Assembly: GCA_018333635.1 (NCBI GenBank)
Contig: JAGXTL010000016.1
Coordinates: forward strand, 1-64,000
Direction of reading: 5' to 3'
DNA length: 64,000 nt
DNA from: Dethiobacter sp.
GTDB lineage: Bacteria; Bacillota; Dethiobacteria; Dethiobacterales; Dethiobacteraceae
Shown: piece after piece, positions 52,316 to 62,910 of the stretch
How positions within the stretch are numbered: the stretch's first letter is position 1
Layout of the letters: each line of letters opens with the position of its first letter
The notes under the pieces: generated by a model
Databases searched by the model: none
Told to the model about the DNA's origin: nothing
The model's input: the letters and a program-made list of their open reading frames with translations, nothing else
Made by a program: the position numbers and the translations under genes

Positions 52316-54958
52316 TTAAGCATTATTGTTCGAAATGTCTGTCATCAACAATGTCCCTTGATTTATGATTTGTTCTGCTTTGTTTCTTTCAAAATGCAAT
52401 TCAGGCAGAACAATCTTTATCTCCTCATCTTCATATCGCCAAAAGACAATGAGATTAACTTTGGCAAATTGAGGCTCATAACCATTTTGCAAAACCCTCT
52501 CAAGTTGCTCCGTACACCTCTTTGAAAGCCTGAAAACACTCTTCCCTCTGTTCGTCAGCCACTCCCCGTCTTTATACTGCAAGATATCGCCGCTTATTAA
52601 GGATTCAACTACATATTGCCTTCCGATAAAATAATTTAGCCATACATCCCGATGACTTAACTGCATTGCCAGTTTTTCCGGCAATTCGTAGTGAGCCGAG
52701 TCTTCCAGTCTTGTCAAATCTTCCACCAGGATGTGATTCAGGTAACGTCCGTTTAGATGTACGGTTAAGTTGTTTTTTGCACGTGTCATTGCCACATATA
52801 GCTGTCTCTTCTTCTCATCTGTGCCTATATCAAAGTTTTCAAGCAAAAGAAAGACATTATCAAATTCTTTGCCTTTTGCTTTATGAATAGTTGAGACAAA
52901 AATAGTTTCTCTGGAATCTGTATAAAAATCTTCTAACTTTGATTCCTTAATAAAAACCTCAAAATCAGATAAATATTTTCTTTTCTGATAAATGGCTTCA
53001 AAATCCCGGATAATGTTTTTGCAAATACCCATGATTTCACTTTTCCCATACCTTCTAATCAATGCCCTTTTTGCCGCATTCCAGATATCATCACTGATAA
53101 TCGTTGTGGTCGGATCGACTGATAATTGTTTGAGAAAGTAGCGCAGTTCTACAAGATCGTAGAGGGAGAACCCGTCATTGGTTTGAATCAATCTTGCCGG
53201 TATTCCTCTTTGCACCAACAGGCCCGTCACCTGGAGCGCTTCATCGTTCGTCTGAGTTAACACACACGTACTTCCTACAAGCTCTCTGCCAGAAAGATCT
53301 TCTATAAAGGGAACGAGCAGATTATTATTCATGTACCGTATAACCCGTATGTCTCCGTTTTCCTGACTATGTGACACAATGTTATTTTTCTTAAGACGTT
53401 CCCGTATCAGACCGGCAAACTGATTTGAAAAATGAACCAGATTTCTTTTACTGCGATAGTTTTCCAACAGTTCATACTTCATCGCCTGCTTCTCGATCAT
53501 AAACTTTTCCATATATTTTGCACTCGAACCACGAAATTCAAATATGTTCTGATCATCATCACCAACGGCAATAACCCGCATATCTTCATTCTGCGCCATT
53601 AAGGCCTGTACCAGCCGAAACACATCCTGATCCATATCCTGTGCTTCATCAATGACAAGTACTGTCTTCGTAATCCTGCTGGGTTCTACTTCCCCATTAC
53701 TAATTTTCTCAATTGTATTGTTTACTACGTTGCCTAACTTCTCAGCATTACCGACCCTGCCAAGCAAATCAAAACAATACGAATGGAAAGTCTTAATCTC
53801 AATAAAATTAGCCGCACCGCCAACCAGTTTTGCCAGACGCTTCTTAAACTCTGTAGCTGCAGCGCGAGAGAAAGTGAGCATTAATAGCTGCTCATGCTTG
53901 ACATCTTCCATCAAAATCAGGGAAGCTAATTTGTGAACTAGCACTCTGGTTTTTCCGCTTCCCGGACCCGCTAACACTGCGATATGCTTGTTTTTGTTAT
54001 CCTTAATAATGCTTAACTGTGTCGGAGACAGTTCACCAAACAATTGTCTGAATTTGCCGGGACTAATGTTCAGTTTTATTTCTTCTCCTCTGCTCCCTTT
54101 AAAATACTTTTGCAGAAAAAAAGTGTAATTCAGGCGGAAGTAGTCTTCTACAAACTGCAGGGCTTCCCGGTAGTTATCAATCATCTTTTTGGCATATTCC
54201 CCGACAATGTGAATCTGTTGCATCTTATTTTCATAAAACTGTTCCAGCTTTTGATAATCTTCAAGTTTATAGCGTCTTTTATTATCTTCCTCCAGCCGTT
54301 CGATGGTCATAGGATTGTAAACCACCAGGAAACCACCCTCAATCTTGATGGCCTCAATACGTGACAAATAGAATAGAGTATCCTCAATATCTTTAATACT
54401 AACCTCACTTTTAAACAGCCTTATACTCTCTTCATATGCTTTCTTTAATTCATGTACCGAGAAGTCGACAAGTATTTCTTCTGCCTCGCTATTTAACCGA
54501 CTGCCCTGCGAATAAAGATATTCAATAATAAATTGGGCAAGCTCCTGCCTTTTTTTCAACCGTTCCCGGAACGTTTCTTTCGACTCCAGAGCAATGGCCC
54601 GAATATGGTTTTTTGAATACTCCAAACCTCTGTATTTAATCATCTTTTTAATCGTCCAATAATTCAAGATTACACGTATCTTATTGGGCGCTACATGATC
54701 ACAACCATATTTTTCCGCTTCTTCGTTCAATTCTTTGACATTATAGGTCGCCTCTTCTTCTTCAATTACTGTAGCCAGATACTTTTCAATACTGCTGTAG
54801 GATTCAAATAGCTGCAACGAACGGTTTGTTCTTTCCCCCTGCTTAATATAAGCCGAGAGGTCTTTGGTATGTGCCAAAATCCCTTCCTCACGCATTAGAT
54901 TCAGAGCATTAATGACGTCTTCCTTTTCAATTGCAAGCTGGTCAGATATATAATCCAC
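52316..54958 (-). CDS. UvrD-family helicase, C-terminal part of a broken RecQ-UvrD gene
   Basis: An 880-codon frame. The first 150-200 residues look like the winged-helix tail of a RecQ-type helicase (SDQLAIEKEDVINALNLMRE). From about 320 there is a complete SF1A helicase: LSPTQLSII, AGPGSGKTRVLVHKL, VIDEAQDMDQDVF, VGDDDQNIFEFRGS, LLENYRSKRNLVHFSNQF, STIHKAKGKEFDNVFL and QLYVAMTRAKNNL. The frame is open 36 codons beyond the GTG at 54958, up to the exonuclease gene, and there is no convincing ribosome site. It is probably the 3' part of one disrupted exonuclease-RecQ-UvrD gene. Confidence 0.7.
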   Translation of the reverse strand: MDYISDQLAIEKEDVINALNLMREEGILAHTKDLSAYIKQGERTNRSLQLFESYSSIEKYLATVIEEEEATYNVKELNEEAEKYGCDHVAPNKIRVILNYWTIKKMIKYRGLEYSKNHIRAIALESKETFRERLKKRQELAQFIIEYLYSQGSRLNSEAEEILVDFSVHELKKAYEESIRLFKSEVSIKDIEDTLFYLSRIEAIKIEGGFLVVYNPMTIERLEEDNKRRYKLEDYQKLEQFYENKMQQIHIVGEYAKKMIDNYREALQFVEDYFRLNYTFFLQKYFKGSRGEEIKLNISPGKFRQLFGELSPTQLSIIKDNKNKHIAVLAGPGSGKTRVLVHKLASLILMEDVKHEQLLMLTFSRAAATEFKKRLAKLVGGAANFIEIKTFHSYCFDLLGRVGNAEKLGNVVNNTIEKISNGEVEPSRITKTVLVIDEAQDMDQDVFRLVQALMAQNEDMRVIAVGDDDQNIFEFRGSSAKYMEKFMIEKQAMKYELLENYRSKRNLVHFSNQFAGLIRERLKKNNIVSHSQENGDIRVIRYMNNNLLVPFIEDLSGRELVGSTCVLTQTNDEALQVTGLLVQRGIPARLIQTNDGFSLYDLVELRYFLKQLSVDPTTTIISDDIWNAAKRALIRRYGKSEIMGICKNIIRDFEAIYQKRKYLSDFEVFIKESKLEDFYTDSRETIFVSTIHKAKGKEFDNVFLLLENFDIGTDEKKRQLYVAMTRAKNNLTVHLNGRYLNHILVEDLTRLEDSAHYELPEKLAMQLSHRDVWLNYFIGRQYVVESLISGDILQYKDGEWLTNRGKSVFRLSKRCTEQLERVLQNGYEPQFAKVNLIVFWRYEDEEIKIVLPELHFERNKAEQIINQGTLLMTDISNNNA

Positions 54959-55049
54959 CCGTGACTCTGCATCTTCATCCAGCTCTATACTATGGCTCCT
55001 GCTGGAAATGAGTCTTTTAATGATCCGTATAGCATTTTCCTTTTCTTTA

Positions 55050-55703
55050 CTATCGAAAAGCCTTTAATATCCACGGTGGTGTAACAGATAAGCGATCCTT
55101 TACATTGATGACGGCCAGAGCATAAGCCAATTCAACAGGATACTCATCAATCAATGTTCTCATATCTGCTCGTTCACAGATCTCTGAAGCAAAGTGTTTT
55201 TTAATCAGTGACACCGGCTCTACTCTTGCTTCGTACCCCAGGTATTGAAAAAAGGACCGAAATTCCTTTTGGTCCTGCAACAGCGCATAAAAAATCTGCT
55301 TCATTGAGCCTTCCAAATGATTAAACGCCATCACTTCATCAGCGAATAACTCTTTGACTTTAATTGAGTCATTTAAAGGATTATTCAGTTCATCCGTTTG
55401 CAGCTTTTCATCTTTAACAAGCGCATGGTAAGGCTTCTTGGGAAACAGCAAGGCCGATAAATACAGAGTATCTATGACCTTCTCAGTTGCTATCCTAAAG
55501 TTCTCCAAAATCGGTCGCATGTATTTCAAATCATGTTTAATGATATTATGGCCGCATAAATAGTCAGCGCCTCTAAGAAAATTTGCAAAGGCAGCTATGG
55601 ACTTAGAATGAAAAACAGCCCCGGCACCATTAATGCCGCCCATATCCAAGATCGCGCTATTCTTCGGATGCACTTCCAGATCAATATAGGCGATGGATTT
55701 CAT
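55050..55703 (-). CDS. DnaQ-like exonuclease domain, 5' part of the same broken gene
   Basis: A 217-residue frame. The N-terminal DEDD exonuclease signature IAYIDLEVHPKN and CGHNIIKHDLKYM is clear, then PKKPYHALVKDEKLQTDELN. The C-terminus ends DRLSVTPPWILKAFR, where in full-length exonuclease-RecQ-UvrD proteins (as I recall the family) a linker and the RecQ helicase domain follow. The helicase frame opens 20 bases before this stop, shifted by one base. The two frames thus look like a deletion joint. Confidence 0.65.
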   Translation of the reverse strand: MKSIAYIDLEVHPKNSAILDMGGINGAGAVFHSKSIAAFANFLRGADYLCGHNIIKHDLKYMRPILENFRIATEKVIDTLYLSALLFPKKPYHALVKDEKLQTDELNNPLNDSIKVKELFADEVMAFNHLEGSMKQIFYALLQDQKEFRSFFQYLGYEARVEPVSLIKKHFASEICERADMRTLIDEYPVELAYALAVINVKDRLSVTPPWILKAFR

Positions 55704-56068
55704 TGCTCATAGCCCCTTACACTATCTTATTGCATTTTCTTCTTAACTTTTTTCGCCACAAATATACATTTTCCTTTAAACTTCCCAAAGACATCCAATT
55801 TAAACATAGTGAAATTCTACCGGCTTATCTTCTAAGAATAAAACGATTAATTAATACACTTTTCATTATGCGGAAAGATCACATTATGCTAAGTATGTAT
55901 TATTAGAAGCTGCTTAGCGAAAGGAATTCTGAGTTGTGTATAAAAGTAAACAAGGCTAATAATATTAAAGCAGGAAAAACTTTCCTCTTTGACGAACTCT
56001 GTTAATGATTGAACATTCATGTCGCAAATTAATAGCTTAATTCGATTATTGGGAAGGAGAAAGTTAAT
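55704..56068. other. Intergenic region with no recognised feature
   Basis: About 365 AT-rich bases between the divergent exonuclease and Sir2 genes. Short frames on both strands have no ribosome sites or family motifs. It should contain promoters for both genes, but no -35/-10 pair convinced me. GGAAGGAGA near 56051 is the Sir2 ribosome site. Confidence 0.5.
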
Positions 56069-56764
56069 GTGAGTACACATAATCCTAGACAGGTAATCGA
56101 AGACTTACGTAGCCACTTGGCTGCACCTGACAGGCGACTTATTTTTCTTTTGGGAGCTGGAGCCTCTGGTGCGGTTAATATTGCACCTATAGAAAGCTCG
56201 CCCTCAAGTGAAAAGCCGAAACATGTACCGCTTATTCCAGGAATTAATGGTTTGACTGAAGAATGTGCTGCTGCTGTAAAATCTATGGGAAAGCCTCAAG
56301 CTGAAGCTTGGGATAAGTTATCTCAACAATGTGAAAAGGAAAGCCGTTCTTCAAATGTAGAAAACATACTTTCTAAGGTTAGAATGAAGATTGATGCAAT
56401 TAGTGAAGAAGAAATGTTGGTTGGCCTTAGCCGAAAACAACTTGCCGAAGTAGAGGAAAATATCTGCAAAACCATAGCTAAAACTGTATGTCCAGATGAA
56501 GATAAAATCCCGGAAAAAATACCACATGATCTTTTTGCTGATTGGGTTAAGAAAGCTAATCGTACCATCCCTCTTGAGATCTTTACTACAAATTATGATG
56601 TTTTGTTAGAACGATCTTTTGAAGCGTCAAGGATCCCGGTTTTTGATGGTTTTGTCGCTTTCTTCATGCAATGGGGGGGAATATTCATTGATGCAAGGCA
56701 GCCCGACCTTAATTGGTTGTGTGGATTCAGTAAAGGGGGCCGTAGTTACAATCCGCCTTTATGA
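56069..56764 (+). CDS. SIR2-domain protein of a Sir2-HerA defence system, truncated
   Basis: A 231-residue frame starting at GTG after GGAAGGAGA. The NAD-binding motif LIFLLGAGASGA and the core motif IFTTNYDVLLERSFEAS are present. In defence-type Sir2 proteins, about 380-400 residues long, a catalytic His-Gly motif and more than 100 further residues should follow. Here the sequence reads IPVFDGFV and then an unrelated tail that overlaps herA by 74 bases. A deletion fused the gene to the herA upstream region, so NADase activity is probably lost. The N-terminal part is otherwise intact. Confidence 0.8.
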   Translation: MSTHNPRQVIEDLRSHLAAPDRRLIFLLGAGASGAVNIAPIESSPSSEKPKHVPLIPGINGLTEECAAAVKSMGKPQAEAWDKLSQQCEKESRSSNVENILSKVRMKIDAISEEEMLVGLSRKQLAEVEENICKTIAKTVCPDEDKIPEKIPHDLFADWVKKANRTIPLEIFTTNYDVLLERSFEASRIPVFDGFVAFFMQWGGIFIDARQPDLNWLCGFSKGGRSYNPPL

Positions 56765-58469
56765 AGTGCCGACCTTCATGATGATTGATGGACGCTCCTA
56801 CAGGGTTGGGCAAATTGGAGCTTTTCTAAGGATTCCTCTGGGTTATACTCACCTCTATGCTATTTGTACACTTGTCGGGGCGGCAGCTGCACCGATTAAT
56901 AATGAAAACACAAAGCCCGGTCAACGGTGGCTTTCTGCAACGCTCTTTGGTGAGTCTATTGGTGGTGTGTTTGAAAGGGGGGTTAGTCAGTACCCAACTA
57001 TTGGGGATGAAGTTCATCTGGTCACGCCTGAAGATATGCGTGTTATTTATGCATCTACTATAGAAGAACGGTCTATTAACGTAGGCCATATTGCCGCAAC
57101 TTCTGGTATTTCCGGTAACCTAGACTTGGGTCGGTTAATTACGCGCCATTCAGCTGTAGTGGGGTCTACCGGCTCGGGCAAATCAAACTTTATGGCAGTT
57201 TTGGTTGAAGCAATTGCAACGCAAGGATATCCTGCAGCACGGGTATTAATTATCGATCCGCATGGTGAGTATGCATCTGCTGTAGGGCAATATGGCAGTG
57301 TTTTTAAGATTAATCCTGACCCAAGAAAAGAGGAAAAACAATTATACGTTCCCTATTGGGCGTTGCCATATGATGAGCTTCAGACTGTAGCTTTAGGACC
57401 TATGCAGCCCGGTGCTGAGACTGCCATTAGAGACGAAGTCACTGAACGCAAAAAAGCGGCTGCTAAGCATCTTGCAAAGCAGCCCCCTGAAACAGTAATA
57501 ACATCTGATTCTCCGATCCCTTTTAGTCTAAGAAAATTATGGTTTGATTTAGATGATTTTGAGCGGCAAACATTTAGTGACAACGCTCGTACAAATCCTA
57601 GCGAAAAAGTAAGAAATGGCAGTGCGCAAAATCTTATATCTAACCTGTACCCAGCTCCTAATCCAGGTAATAGTGCACCATTTGCCCATCCTCGCCCGAG
57701 AAACATCGCAAAACAGTTAGAACTATTAAAAAGTCGGCTTCAGGACTCCAGGTTTGCATTTCTCTTCCAACCTGGTGATGGTTTTTCACCCGATTTGGAT
57801 GGTAAGATTAATGGAGACTTAGACATTCTCGTGCAGTCTTGGGTGGGGCACGATAAACCAGTGACTGTGCTGGACGTATCTGGTCTGCCACCAGAAGTGC
57901 TATCAATTGTAGTAGGTACTTTAGTCAGGATTGTTTATGATATGTTGTTCTGGGCATACGATTTGCCGATTAGTGGACGGAATCAGCCGCTTTTGCTTAT
58001 ATTGGAAGAAGCACATATTTTCCTTCAGGAAGGACATGAATCTGCCGCACACAGGACGATATCCAGAATTGCAAAAGAAGGCCGTAAGTACGGAGTAGGG
58101 TTATGCGTGGTGACTCAACGCCCAGTCGAGATTGAGAGCACCGTCTTAAGCCAATGTGGTACAATGATTGCGTTACGACTCGCTAATTCAGCGGATCGTT
58201 CTAAAGTAGAAGCAGCTATGCCTGATGATTTGGGAGCATTATCCGGAATGCTACCCGCATTAAGAACCGGGGAAGGTATAGTATTAGGAGAAGCAATGCC
58301 AATTCCTTCACGAATTCAGTTCTTTAAAGCTCGTAGTCGCCTTCGTGGCGACGATCCCGATGTGCCGCAGGCTTGGCGTCAATCCCGCCCGGATGGTTTG
58401 TACTATGAATCAGCGTTAAACAACTGGCGGCAACAAACAGATGTTAGAGGGGAGAACGGTGATGGTTGA
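56691..58469 (+). CDS. herA: HerA-family ATPase (Sir2-HerA anti-phage system)
   Basis: A 592-residue DNA-translocase ATPase. An N-terminal HAS-barrel (SPTLIGCVDSVKGAVVTIRL) is followed by the ATPase with Walker A VVGSTGSGKSNF, IDPHGEYASAVG, Walker B LLILEEAHIFL and the sensor regions VVTQRPVEIE and RLANSADRSKVEAAMPDDLG. The ATG at 56691 has GGGGGGGA ten bases upstream; a frame 24 codons longer lies within the Sir2 gene. HerA forms hexamers with Sir2 in known systems that deplete NAD on infection. The enzyme is intact. Confidence 0.9.
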   Translation: MQGSPTLIGCVDSVKGAVVTIRLYEVPTFMMIDGRSYRVGQIGAFLRIPLGYTHLYAICTLVGAAAAPINNENTKPGQRWLSATLFGESIGGVFERGVSQYPTIGDEVHLVTPEDMRVIYASTIEERSINVGHIAATSGISGNLDLGRLITRHSAVVGSTGSGKSNFMAVLVEAIATQGYPAARVLIIDPHGEYASAVGQYGSVFKINPDPRKEEKQLYVPYWALPYDELQTVALGPMQPGAETAIRDEVTERKKAAAKHLAKQPPETVITSDSPIPFSLRKLWFDLDDFERQTFSDNARTNPSEKVRNGSAQNLISNLYPAPNPGNSAPFAHPRPRNIAKQLELLKSRLQDSRFAFLFQPGDGFSPDLDGKINGDLDILVQSWVGHDKPVTVLDVSGLPPEVLSIVVGTLVRIVYDMLFWAYDLPISGRNQPLLLILEEAHIFLQEGHESAAHRTISRIAKEGRKYGVGLCVVTQRPVEIESTVLSQCGTMIALRLANSADRSKVEAAMPDDLGALSGMLPALRTGEGIVLGEAMPIPSRIQFFKARSRLRGDDPDVPQAWRQSRPDGLYYESALNNWRQQTDVRGENGDG

Positions 58470-58674
58470 TTTGATTTTTGTTGACTCTTCAAATATTGAA
58501 GCAATCGGATATGATGATGGGACTAGTGATCTCCACATTCAATTTACTTCAGGCAGTTACTATATTTTTCATAATGTACCCCGCGACATATTCGAGTCAA
58601 TACTTTACGCACCTTCTAAAGGAAGTTTCTTTAATAGAGAGGTAAAGGGTATTTACACGTTTACGAGACAATGA
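58462..58674 (+). CDS. KTSC-domain small protein
   Basis: A 70-residue protein. SSNIEAIGYDDGTSDLHIQF with YYIFHNVPRDIFESIL and SKGSFFNREVKG match the KTSC domain (named after a Lys-Thr-Ser-Cys motif in lysyl-tRNA synthetases and phage proteins). The ATG overlaps the herA end by eight bases and follows GGGGAG, so it is translationally coupled to herA. It may be a third part of the defence operon or a partner in RNA or nucleotide binding. Confidence 0.75.
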   Translation: MVDLIFVDSSNIEAIGYDDGTSDLHIQFTSGSYYIFHNVPRDIFESILYAPSKGSFFNREVKGIYTFTRQ

Positions 58675-58901
58675 TGCCGCAAATTTTCCCGCAAGCATCC
58701 AGACCCACGGGAGTATCCCTTTTAAAATAATTAACCGTAGCTTCACTTTTCCCCTTGCTTTCAGGGTCGCCGCTACGGCAAAGATAGACATCAACAGTAA
58801 TAGATGGTTATAAACATAATGAAAAGTGCGAAACTCCTTTAGCGATAATTAAGTTTAGTTGCTGCTTTTCATTTAACAGATGTAAAGCTGACTCTCATTC
58901 G

Positions 58902-59252
58902 TTATAAAATATCAGCGTATAATCCTTCTTTTGTCTTAGTAAACACAACTTTAGACGGAAATAAGTTCTCTCCCATATCGGCGAAACCAACTAAAGTCAT
59001 TGCCCATTCTGATAACTCGATTGGAAGTCGGTAGCATTTTACATTACCTGCTTCCGCTATTGTAATTAATGGAATCATCTCTTGACTACAACCGACTGCC
59101 AAAGCATCGCAGACAATTCGGTCTTTTGTTATTTCGAGCAAAGGTTGCTTATTGATGTCAAAATAAACCTTTGCTCCTCGTTGATTCAAAAAGTAATCCT
59201 TTGAGGGTATAATGTACACAGATACCTCTAAATGTTTGCACATCTTCTCCAC
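58902..59252 (-). CDS. Unknown protein fused to an IS3 orfB fragment
   Basis: A 116-residue frame. The first 11 residues (VEKMCKHLEVS) are from the N-terminus of an IS3-type orfB transposase, and the frame stays open upstream through more orfB sequence. The rest, YIIPSKDYFLNQRGAKVYFD and MTLVGFADMGENLFPSKVVF, is a protein I do not recognise. It is probably the 3' part of a gene cut by the insertion element. Expression is uncertain. Confidence 0.5.
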   Translation of the reverse strand: MEKMCKHLEVSVYIIPSKDYFLNQRGAKVYFDINKQPLLEITKDRIVCDALAVGCSQEMIPLITIAEAGNVKCYRLPIELSEWAMTLVGFADMGENLFPSKVVFTKTKEGLYADIL

Positions 59253-59670
59253 CGAAAATTTGGAGCTGTTATAACCTGTGCCACGCTTGTCCTGAGTAGC
59301 ACGTATATGCTGATAAACTATTTCCGGTTGGTTTCCAAGAAGAGTGCTGTAGCCTTTTTTAATATTAGAACGGCCTCCTTGAGTTCGGCAGTCCTGCGCT
59401 TTTCTGCTTTAAGCTGTCTCTCAAGATCCTGAATCCTTACATGGTCGGGGTCTTGCTGCTGTTTATGTTCTTTAATCCAGTTGCTTAATGTTTGGGGGTT
59501 AAAAAACTGTTATAACGCTGTAAATAGACCGATTTCCCTCAAGAACCATTCTGATTGCATCCGCTTTAAACTCATCGCTGTACCGGTTTGTTGTTTTTGA
59601 CATTTTTTATCTCCTCCACAGGGTTATTATAGCCTAACCACTGTGTGTCCGGCAAACCGGGTATAGGTCA
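59220..59670 (-). mobile_element. IS3-family insertion sequence, left-end remnant
   Basis: The left end begins at 59670 with TGACCTATACCCGGTTTGCC and runs on the minus strand through orfA and the first codons of orfB. The rest of orfB with the DDE residues and the right end are missing; the sequence passes into an unknown ORF at about 59220. The left end interrupts a PIN-domain gene. Confidence 0.75.
59318..59603 (-). pseudogene. IS3 orfA transposase, frameshifted
   Basis: MSKTTNRYSDEFKADAIRMV after GGAGGAG is a standard IS3/IS911 orfA start. The frame fails at a T-run near 59500; the second half continues in another frame as NPQTLSNWIKEHKQQQDPDH and then a leucine-zipper region ending LFLETNRK. 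One base change in the T-run or a short deletion explains it. Confidence 0.8.
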
Positions 59671-59844
59671 AATATTTCTACGAGAAATATTCTTATCTCT
59701 TCTTATATCTAAAATAGAACTTGGGTGACACAATAGAGTGCAACGGTAAGTAGTGGCTAACTGGTTTACGTTAGCCATCTCGTTATTTAAAGGAGAAAAA
59801 TCCTCTAACGGTATCAAAATGTTTGTATCCAATAATCTTCTCAT
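59668..59844 (-). pseudogene. PIN-domain protein cut by the IS3 element
   Basis: A 58-residue frame starting MRRLLDTNILIPLEDFSP, the PIN N-terminus with its first aspartate, and CTLLCHPSSILDIRRDK. The stop TGA is the first three bases of the IS left end. The rest of the PIN domain is lost. It lies downstream of the ASCH-domain gene on the same strand; PIN and ASCH genes are sometimes paired in toxin-antitoxin-like loci. Confidence 0.7.
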
Positions 59845-59923
59845 TTTTCATCATCCAATAATTTACAGAGGTTCTCTTTCTACATATTTCCTCTTTTCCC
59901 TGCAAATAGTTATTGACAGGAAA

Positions 59924-59951
59924 ACAAAAAAAGGACAAAAAATTGTCCTTT
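59924..59951 (-). terminator. Terminator at the ASCH gene end
   Basis: AAAGGACA and TGTCCTTT pair across a six-base loop, followed by a T-run on the minus strand. The upstream arm includes the ASCH stop codon. Confidence 0.8.
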
Positions 59952-60388
59952 ATTGCAGATAATCTGTTAGTAATGAATATAGAGGATGACTTTCATTTAG
60001 GAAATGGAAAAATTGCGGAGGGTTGTATTGAGGCATATACTCTCTCAGAGCCTCGAGCGTAAAGGCATTCTGGTAAGTTACTATATTTTTCAACTTTAAT
60101 GCGTAGCCGGTTTCACAACCGCTAAAATAGTTTACAAAATCATTATATCCTACTGCACATTGTCCTTTTACTTTTTCCCACAAGGTATCGATTGCAGCAC
60201 CCATGATTCTATCTACTTCTGCCACTGCCACTACTTTTTTGCCGGGGCTCGTTTGATAAATGATCAGCTTATCCCCACGATTTAAACTCGGCTTTCTGCG
60301 TCTTAACTCATACGTTTTATATCCTTCAATAATCGCTTCAACATGTTCGGGCTTAATATTTCGCAGCTTTTTTATTTGCCTCTTTCAT
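59950..60388 (-). pseudogene. ASCH-domain protein with one-base frameshift
   Basis: An ATG at 60388 after AGAGGT opens MKEANKK and then fails. Removing one A from the run of six A restores a single 145-residue frame: MKEANKKLRNIKPEHVEAII, then YELRRRKPSLNRGDKLIIYQ, AEVDRIMGAAIDTLWEKVKG and NPPQFFHFLNESHPLY, a clear ASCH domain (RNA-binding fold). The 439-base span less one is divisible by three. The run length could also be a sequencing error. Confidence 0.75.
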
Positions 60389-60438
60389 ATCTATACCTCT
60401 ATTATATTAGAACACTTGTTCCGACTCAATGACTTGCT

Positions 60439-61449
60439 TTAGCTTTTTCTGTGCACGTCATCATCATCATGGCATACAGTGCAAAGGGTTACCAAATTGT
60501 CCTCGGTATTTTTTCCACCTTTTGCGTGCTCTTTAACATGGTGGAGTTCGAGATGCCTGGGGTCGGACCTATCCCATAGGCTTTTATTCCACTGACATCT
60601 TACACATGTATAATTGTCTCTACGTAATACGCGACCACGTACCGGGTCGGGTATTATTCTATCGTGTTCAGGGCTTTGGCGGGTTGATTCCAGGAGGTAT
60701 GTACCTACGGGTAGATCCGGTTTGCCTGTGGTTTTGGTAACGATGGGCCAGCCGTATTCCGTTCTTAATTCTCTTACTCTTCTTGCCCATTCGGTTTTAT
60801 CTTTTGCAACGTAGCGGAGTTCTTCGCCGGTTACCGGTTCACCTACGTTTTGTTTAAGGTACTCTAGAATTTTGTTTCGAACCGACTCATTACTGTTACG
60901 TATATTCTTGGCCAGGTTCCAGCGGAAAGCTGCTTGCTTGTCTTGCTCCGACGATAGGAGTATATAATCGTCGGGCTTAATATTTTGTATGTTCTCGAGA
61001 GGGAAATCCTCTTCCTGGTACATTTCCTTTGCTGCTGTACCACTGATAATTGCCCATCCATATTCGACCCGTAACTCACGCACTCTTCTTGCATATTCCT
61101 GAATACCGGAAATTACAGACAGTTCATCGCCGTTAATTATGGTAAGAGGATACTTGAGGAAATATTGGAGTATTCTTTGCCGTGCGCTTACCGTACTACC
61201 TTCCGGTGCAAGAGAAATACCAAGTGCTCTTAAAGTGTGAAGTACCGGGACAAGGGAAAGAACTTTTGGCCGGAGCTCTTCCTTTTGCAGCTCCAGCTCA
61301 AAATTATTTAACAGCCTATGGAGTTCTTGTATAATTTGCTCCGGCTCGGCTTTCAATGGTCGGTTCTCCCTTTCCATTTCTAGAAATGCACCTTTTAGCA
61401 CGATGTCGGGCTTGCCGGGTAAATCGGGGTTACCACTAATCCGAGCCAT
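60439..61449 (-). CDS. HNH endonuclease of a type II restriction system
   Basis: A 336-residue protein. The C-terminal HNH nuclease has zinc cysteines in YTCVRCQ and TLCTVCHDDDD and the core LELHHVKEHAKGG with NTEDNLVTLC. Before it are two copies of a ~50-residue winged-helix-like unit: RQRILQYFLKYPLTIINGDE with RRVRELRVEYGWAIIS, and RNKILEYLKQNVGEPVTGEE with RRVRELRTEYGWPIVT. The start overlaps the methyltransferase stop by one base (TAATG). It is the probable restriction enzyme partner; the duplicated part may read DNA. Confidence 0.85.
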   Translation of the reverse strand: MARISGNPDLPGKPDIVLKGAFLEMERENRPLKAEPEQIIQELHRLLNNFELELQKEELRPKVLSLVPVLHTLRALGISLAPEGSTVSARQRILQYFLKYPLTIINGDELSVISGIQEYARRVRELRVEYGWAIISGTAAKEMYQEEDFPLENIQNIKPDDYILLSSEQDKQAAFRWNLAKNIRNSNESVRNKILEYLKQNVGEPVTGEELRYVAKDKTEWARRVRELRTEYGWPIVTKTTGKPDLPVGTYLLESTRQSPEHDRIIPDPVRGRVLRRDNYTCVRCQWNKSLWDRSDPRHLELHHVKEHAKGGKNTEDNLVTLCTVCHDDDDVHRKS

Positions 61450-62807
61450 TACCCGGCTTCGTTTGTTTTAATCGAAGACATCCATGCACATTCTTCTTCC
61501 TGTGTTAGGAGTACATACACAATATCGGCAATGCGGGCGGCCAAAAGGGGCGGTACAGCGTTACCGATTTGCTTGGCGATTTCGATTTTCGTGCCGGTAA
61601 AAATAAACGCATCGGGGAAGCTCTGCAAGCGTGCCGCTTCCCGGTGGGTAATCGGCCTGTGCTGCTCAGGATGTAGGTAGCGGCCTTTTTCCGGCTTAAA
61701 GAATTCCGTACGAATGGTAAAGGCGGGGCGGTCCCACCACAATCTGCCGAATAAATCTGTTCCGCCTGTTTTCTTTCTGATCCAACAGTCGGGGGTCAGT
61801 TCGGGGGCTATTCGTTGCAGGTCGAAACGGTTCATCCCCTCTTCCGGAATAGCCTTGTATCTTTTTACACTAAGCGGTGTCGGGGACCGGCCGAAATGTA
61901 AATCCAAAGGAGGCGGAACATCTCGGATACCGGCACCTTCAGGCTCAGGCAAGTCTGAGATTGCGTCTTTTACCGTTCTCCACCTCTGAGGCGAGTGCAA
62001 ATACGCCTCGTTTTGTATGGTAATGCCTATAGTATTTTGAATTCCGCCTTTTTCCGGGTTGTAGTGAGTTTTTCTTGGCGGGAAAATTATCGACGGGTCT
62101 ATTTTTGAGCCGATGATGACGGCTCTGGTTCGTGTTTGGGGAACTCCGTAATCCGCCGCACAAAGCTTGTCCGAAACAACCTTAAAGCCCAACATTTCGG
62201 CGGTTTCCACGATTTGCTTATGTTCTTCCGACCCTAATAATTGAGGTACGTTTTCTATTACAAATACCTTTGCCCCGCAGCGCTTTACCACTTCCAGATA
62301 AGGACGCCATAATTGGTTTCTTGGATCCCCTTCACGGTTTTTGTTCAGTAAACTAAAACCCTGGCAAGGAGGTCCGCCAATCACCACGTCGGCCGACGGA
62401 ATCTTAACACTCCTATCGCTTAGGATTTCGCTTATATCACCGAGAACACAGTGGTTGCCAAAGTTAGCGTTATACGTATCCACGCAATACTTATTAAAAT
62501 CATTGGCCCATACTGAAGTAAAATTATGCCCGAACGATTTGGAAAAACCTAGCGACATTCCGCCTGCACCGCTGAATAAGTCGATGAGTTTGAAATCGCG
62601 ATTTTTTCGTGTTGACTGTCCACATGTACGATGATTGTAGGCAGCCTCATCTTCTTTCAGCAATAGTGCGGCGTACTCATTTTTTTTGGCATATTTCTTC
62701 ATATCTGCCCAACCCTCAAATCCGGAATATAGCATTCCTTTTAATTTTTCAATAGTAAATAGCAAATTCCTGCAAGTGCACCCAGACTGAGCCAAATCAT
62801 TTTGCAT
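61449..62807 (-). CDS. DNA (cytosine-5-)-methyltransferase
   Basis: A 452-residue C5 methyltransferase. Motif I is LIDLFSGAGGMSLGFS, motif IV VVIGGPPCQGFSLLN (catalytic cysteine), motif VI VFIENVPQLLGS, motif VIII QTRTRAVIIGS and motif X KQIGNAVPPLLA. An N-terminal part of about 85 residues precedes motif I. The ATG at 62807 follows GAGGTGAT; a frame 14 codons longer has no site. Together with the HNH gene it makes a complete type II restriction-modification system. The target sequence is not predictable. Confidence 0.94.
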   Translation of the reverse strand: MQNDLAQSGCTCRNLLFTIEKLKGMLYSGFEGWADMKKYAKKNEYAALLLKEDEAAYNHRTCGQSTRKNRDFKLIDLFSGAGGMSLGFSKSFGHNFTSVWANDFNKYCVDTYNANFGNHCVLGDISEILSDRSVKIPSADVVIGGPPCQGFSLLNKNREGDPRNQLWRPYLEVVKRCGAKVFVIENVPQLLGSEEHKQIVETAEMLGFKVVSDKLCAADYGVPQTRTRAVIIGSKIDPSIIFPPRKTHYNPEKGGIQNTIGITIQNEAYLHSPQRWRTVKDAISDLPEPEGAGIRDVPPPLDLHFGRSPTPLSVKRYKAIPEEGMNRFDLQRIAPELTPDCWIRKKTGGTDLFGRLWWDRPAFTIRTEFFKPEKGRYLHPEQHRPITHREAARLQSFPDAFIFTGTKIEIAKQIGNAVPPLLAARIADIVYVLLTQEEECAWMSSIKTNEAG

Positions 62808-62910
62808 TATCACCTCTACCGTCACCCCTGACTTTAGATATTTCTTCAATAACTATATCCGAATCTATGTTATAATTTTATTTAGTGCAAAGATGTAATG
62901 GAGGGAACTT

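What the first reader, a model, noticed from the sequence alone, without database searches (positions are those of the whole stretch)
56069..58469. Sir2-HerA anti-phage operon with truncated Sir2
HerA is complete. Sir2 keeps the NAD-binding GAGAS and TTNYD motifs but ends soon after VFDGFV, before the expected His-Gly catalytic motif and the C-terminal half, in a tail that overlaps herA. The deletion appears to join the Sir2 middle to the herA ribosome site. The herA start, promoter side and neighbours were kept. Either the system is dead or HerA has a new use with the adjacent KTSC protein.
Basis: partly seen in the sequence, partly recalled or inferred. Interest (0 to 1): 0.66.

Follow-up and report, generated by a model that had tools for sequence, protein, structure and literature searches.

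The report
Broken Sir2-HerA-KTSC phage-defence operon
A bacterial anti-phage operon has lost the catalytic half of its NAD-destroying gene through one out-of-frame internal deletion, so it is most likely an ordinary disabled copy of a known defence system, and the small KTSC gene beside it is a normal part of that system.

Summary
The Sir2 ORF (56069-56764) keeps GAGAS and TTNYD, has no His-Gly motif, and runs 74 bases into a complete herA (56691-58469). In frame +2 the DNA before herA still encodes the family's Sir2 C-terminus (FCRFLHAMGGNIH, then TGATG stop/start), the best-scoring octamer of 90,851 in the window's six frames. One deletion of about 190-225 codons, length 1 mod 3, perhaps between copies of TTTTGTCG, explains everything. 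It removed all 25 invariant residues of the distal half, including the catalytic His.

All 28 intact related operon records (about 25 distinct) have a full-length Sir2; no short-Sir2 subfamily appeared. KTSC follows herA in all of them, fused to HerA in one and in the solved HerA 8wiv. So 'new use with KTSC' is not supported. The genome also has an intact Sir2-HerA-KTSC operon on contig C8. The same broken allele, 100% identical over 7,009 bp, occurs in a second MAG whose core is only about 87-92% identical.

The divergent neighbour, a RecQ-family helicase gene, also has an internal out-of-frame deletion (55059-55063) that removed its RecQ core: a decaying defence island.

Interest low; a disabled member of a known kind.

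The parts
56069..56764 (+). Truncated sir2 ORF (231 aa, GTG start): intact N-terminal part to FDGFV, then an out-of-frame tail overlapping herA
56650..56657 (+). Deletion junction: TTTTGTCG can be read as GFV(G) in frame 0 (left side) and as FC(R) in frame +2 (right side); inferred short direct repeat
   Evidence: repeat in the parent inferred from protein conservation, parent sequence not available
56650..56691 (+). Remnant of the Sir2 C-terminus in frame +2: FCRFLHAMGGNIH stop, with TGATG stop/start overlap to herA
   Evidence: top octamer of 90,851; FCRFL also in Rhizobium johnstonii and L059
56691..58469 (+). herA, complete (592 aa; Walker A GSTGSGKS at 158, LLLILEEAH at 434, RIAKEGRK at 459)
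58462..58674 (+). KTSC-domain gene (70 aa), overlaps the herA end by 8 bases; conserved third component of this clade
   Evidence: (PF13619, 1.1e-21)
55059..55703 (-). N-terminal (exonuclease-like) part of a divergent RecQ-family helicase gene, relative residues about 34-242
52316..55063 (-). C-terminal (UvrD-helicase) part of the same RecQ-family gene, relative residues about 727 to end; about 484 residues (the RecQ core) are missing between the two parts and the frame is shifted
59380..59615 (-). Degenerate IS-type transposase remnant (HTH_Tnp_1) split over two frames
   Evidence: E 9.1e-5 and 5.1e-3, below gathering cut-off

Best explanation
This is a Sir2-HerA-KTSC anti-phage operon disabled by one internal deletion in sir2. 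In the intact kind (established for characterised Sir2-HerA/Nezha systems), a Sir2 dodecamer sits on a HerA hexamer, phage infection triggers NAD hydrolysis by Sir2, and infection aborts. Here an out-of-frame deletion of about 190-225 codons (shown by comparison), probably slippage between short repeats (inferred), removed the catalytic His, the distal half of the NAD-binding fold and the C-terminal region. It left an N-terminal fragment with a nonsense tail. The fragment cannot hydrolyse NAD (inferred from known active-site mutants). HerA and KTSC are still encoded but lack their effector, and translational coupling of herA to the sir2 stop codon is probably weakened (inferred). The allele is probably recent, because HerA has not decayed. 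The loss may be tolerable because the genome keeps an intact second operon on contig C8 and because the island itself is decaying: the neighbouring RecQ-family helicase gene is broken in the same way.
For: Sir2 matches only the first 179 of 395 profile positions. Across 15 aligned intact relatives, all 25 invariant residues of the distal half, including HGS, lie in the missing part. The frame +2 remnant of the C-terminus is exactly where expected. The missing Sir2 part is not elsewhere in the genome except as the C8 paralogue. All 28 intact relative records (about 25 distinct) have a full-length Sir2 with HGS. In V. cholerae Nezha, SIR2 N168A or H227A abolishes immunity (PMC11559045); in DSR2 the equivalent H171A mutant loses NADase activity (PMC11263360). 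A second out-of-frame internal deletion lies in the adjacent gene.
Against: HerA and KTSC are intact, which a long-dead operon would not predict; this needs a recent deletion or residual function. The same allele sits in two MAGs that otherwise differ by about 8-13%, so it may have been transferred in the broken state, though mis-binning of the 7-kb contig is possible. No read data were available, so an assembly error cannot be excluded formally.
Confidence: 0.85

Rival explanations
1. HerA and KTSC are retained for a use of their own (DNA translocase plus putative DNA-binding partner), with Sir2 dispensable or replaced by another effector.
For: HerA and KTSC are intact. HerA-KTSC pairs with an endoDNase instead of Sir2 have been reported (PMC9503650). 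HerA-KTSC fusions exist.
Against: No nuclease gene has taken Sir2's place in the operon; the Sir2 promoter side and N-terminal fragment remain; KTSC is equally present in all intact Sir2 operons of the clade; only one allele is known, so retention may just be recency.
Confidence: 0.07
2. The N-terminal Sir2 fragment is a functional product, for example an inhibitor or modulator of HerA or of the intact C8 Sir2-HerA complex.
For: The ORF is open, keeps its start and the GAGAS and TTNYD motifs, and 20 of 23 invariant N-part residues are unchanged.
Against: The fragment lacks half the fold and ends in an out-of-frame tail; it is only about 32% identical to the C8 Sir2; G001 carries the fragment but no C8-type operon; no conserved short form was found.
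Confidence: 0.03
3. The junction is an assembly artefact and the real operon is intact.
For: Both copies are metagenome-type contigs (the G001 record is titled MAG); two internal deletions lie within 1.6 kb of each other, which is unusual.
Against: Same 7,009 bp, zero differences, in a second assembly with different contig ends; a 7-8 base overlap is far below usual assembly k-mers (own knowledge); the missing segment is nowhere else in either assembly, although an intact allele should leave a contig.
Confidence: 0.05

Closest known systems
Sir2-HerA system with solved structures 8w9l (Sir2, 381 aa) and 8wiv/8wld/8woc (HerA, 696 aa)
   Same: Closest solved relatives: window HerA matches 8wiv at E 2.7e-141, Sir2 N-part matches 8w9l at E 2.1e-15; HerA of 8wiv carries a C-terminal KTSC domain (residues 632-695)
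   Different: Here KTSC is a separate gene and Sir2 lacks its distal half
Nezha / SIR2-HerA of E. coli and V. cholerae (8uaf and relatives; PMC11559045)
   Same: Sir2 NADase plus HerA, same gene order
   Different: A more distant HerA clade (8j4u_M, E 3e-31); no KTSC found next to herA in the more distant-clade loci examined; the window's Sir2 is broken
Sir2-HerA-KTSC operon on contig C8 of the same genome
   Same: Same three genes in the same order; HerA 46% identical
   Different: Sir2 intact (433 aa, HGS at 218)

Membership tests
Sir2-HerA (Nezha-type) defence operon, KTSC clade | HerA ATPase of the anti-phage clade, complete | tested here: met
   PADLOC HerA 1.3e-151, 8wiv match 2.7e-141
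Sir2-HerA (Nezha-type) defence operon, KTSC clade | Sir2 gene directly upstream, same strand, overlapping or abutting herA | tested here: met
   Sir2 homology restricted to the N-terminal 196 residues
Sir2-HerA (Nezha-type) defence operon, KTSC clade | Complete Sir2 NADase with catalytic Asn (TTNYD) and His (HGS) | tested here: not met
   TTNYD present, HGS and all distal invariant residues absent
Sir2-HerA (Nezha-type) defence operon, KTSC clade | KTSC gene after herA or fused to it | tested here: met
Sir2-HerA (Nezha-type) defence operon, KTSC clade | Phage protection through NAD depletion | not testable with these tools
   needs expression and infection assays
Conserved short-Sir2 HerA subfamily | Same truncated Sir2 in diverged genomes | tested here: not met
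   about 900 genomes, plasmids and viral contigs searched; only the identical allele in G001

The most novel reading that the evidence does not exclude
HerA-KTSC works without an active Sir2 in this host, alone or with the C8 Sir2, so that the broken operon still senses or processes phage DNA.
Probability: 0.07. Interest if true: 0.55.

Novelty: new member of a known kind. Interest (0 to 1): 0.22.

Why it matters
It shows one way a Sir2-HerA operon is switched off in nature: a single internal deletion in the NADase while HerA and KTSC stay whole. The comparison also shows that KTSC is a constant third component of one Sir2-HerA clade, sometimes fused to HerA, which I did not find discussed for Sir2-containing operons in the open papers searched. 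That makes the role of KTSC a testable question.

Tried and rejected
Rejected: a frameshift in the G7 run as the cause (frame 0 'FVAFFMQW' also resembles a C-terminus by eye, but frame +2 scored far higher and ends at the expected TGATG); relocation of the missing Sir2 part (not found); a conserved short-Sir2 subfamily (none found). In one search the line scoring 'FCRFLHAM' itself is out of register by one column and is not used; the octamer in register is CRFLHAMG. Led nowhere: viral-contig scan with the single HerA sequence; an 81%-identical HerA end in L065 (only the last 167 residues, at a contig end, no Sir2); E. coli genomes (one record only); structural papers on Sir2-HerA (PMC11514289, PMC11472057, PMC11418745 not held).

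Full report
WHAT IS THERE. The window lies on contig C95 of a 2.39-Mb, 137-contig genome (98.1% complete). Sir2 is a GTG-started ORF at 56069-56764 (231 aa), HerA 56691-58469 (592 aa), and a KTSC gene 58462-58674 (70 aa) overlaps the end of herA. Sir2 matches only positions 1-179 of a 395-position PADLOC SIR2 profile (E 3.9e-50), while HerA matches nearly the whole HerA profile (E 1.3e-151). KTSC matches PF13619 at 1.1e-21.

WHAT IS MISSING. I collected 15 intact relatives (contig C8 of the same genome, four other genomes of the same phylum, ten plasmids) and aligned their Sir2 proteins. They are 357-433 aa long, and all carry TTNYD and HGS. The window Sir2 aligns up to FDGFV. Everything after it is gone: all 25 residues that are invariant in the distal half, among them L-W-K-x-H-G-S, K-Y, R-L and G-x-S-x-x-D-x-H. 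HerA in contrast keeps 92 of 98 invariant columns with mild replacements in the other six; when intact relatives are left out in turn they lose 0-8, so HerA shows no decay.

HOW IT WAS LOST. After FDGFV the open frame reads AFFMQWGGIFIDAR..., which looks like nothing. In frame +2 the same DNA reads FCRFLHAMGGNIH-stop, and the stop overlaps the herA start as TGATG. A profile of the family's C-terminal helix ranks CRFLHAMG first among 90,851 stop-free octamers in the six frames of the whole window. Rhizobium johnstonii (FCRFLALS) and L059 (FCRFLAIS) have the same motif, and TGATG overlaps between sir2 and herA recur in relatives. One deletion, length 1 mod 3 and about 187-226 codons by comparison, therefore explains the truncation, the odd tail and the overlap. 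The eight bases 56650-56657 (TTTTGTCG) fit both the left side (G-F-V-G) and the right side (F-C-R), which suggests slippage between short repeats. This last step is inferred, since no parent allele was found. The missing part is not elsewhere in this genome or in three congeners, except as the intact C8 paralogue.

SECOND COPY OF THE ALLELE. A MAG of the same genus (G001; record JAGXRV010000021.1, 'Clostridium sp. isolate CROMO_A_128') holds a 7,009-bp contig 100% identical to window 54878-61886, while its syntenic core is only 87-92% identical. Either the broken island moved recently between species or the contig is mis-binned; an overlapping 96%-identical contig (C26) makes mis-binning a real possibility. 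In either case the junction appears in two assemblies.

KTSC IS A STANDARD PART. In every operon of the clade whose HerA is about 36-48% identical to the window's (28 intact records, about 25 distinct), a KTSC gene follows herA; in L059 it is fused to HerA. In the solved HerA 8wiv, residues 632-695 match the window's KTSC protein. In the more distant-clade loci no KTSC was found by the same profile. PMC9503650 mentions HerA-KTSC with an endoDNase in place of sirtuin and calls KTSC DNA-binding.

THE NEIGHBOURHOOD IS DECAYING. The divergent neighbour looks like two ORFs (55050-55703 and 52316-54958, minus strand). They are the two ends of one RecQ-family helicase: Bacteroides finegoldii WP_022275194.1 (1,624 aa) aligns with residues 35-243 and 728-1624 at 41-45% identity, and the residues between (about 244-726, the whole RecQ core at 275-670) are missing, with a frame change at 55059-55063. 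A degenerate transposase remnant lies downstream at about 59380-59615. So two neighbouring, divergent genes of defence-island type each lost their middle.

MECHANISM. In characterised systems Sir2 forms a dodecamer on a HerA hexamer and hydrolyses NAD on infection (PMC11559045 and PMC12198126). Changing the catalytic Asn or His abolishes immunity (V. cholerae N168A, H227A). A protein lacking His and half the fold cannot be an active NADase. This is an inference from those mutants, not a test of this protein. HerA is still encoded, but its start, formerly coupled to the sir2 stop, now lies 74 bases inside the frame-shifted ORF, so its expression may be reduced (inference).

VERDICT. Observation confirmed and refined. 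The 'dead system' reading is well supported (0.85), the 'new use' reading is not. The locus is a disabled member of a known kind.

Noticed in passing
window 52316-55703 (-): A RecQ-family helicase gene (exonuclease-RecQ-UvrD, about 1,600 aa in relatives) with an internal out-of-frame deletion of about 480 codons that removed the RecQ core, 1.6 kb from the sir2 deletion; both junctions show a 5-8 base overlap.
   Followed up: yes
G000 contig C8 (L002, L028): Second, intact Sir2-HerA-KTSC operon in the same genome (HerA 46% identical).
   Followed up: partly
L059:1194-3242; PDB 8wiv residues 632-695: HerA-KTSC fusions, in line with KTSC acting with HerA in this clade of Sir2-HerA systems.
   Followed up: yes
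window 54878-61886 and G001:C21: 7 kb identical between two congeners whose core is 87-92% identical: recent exchange of the defence island, or a mis-binned contig.
   Followed up: partly
window 60439-62849 (-): Cytosine-5 DNA methyltransferase next to an HNH protein that resembles a type II restriction enzyme: probable restriction-modification pair in the same island.
   Followed up: no
L065:3501-4001: Fragment of a HerA 81% identical to the window's at the end of an IMG/VR contig; the sample behind it may hold a close intact relative.
   Followed up: partly
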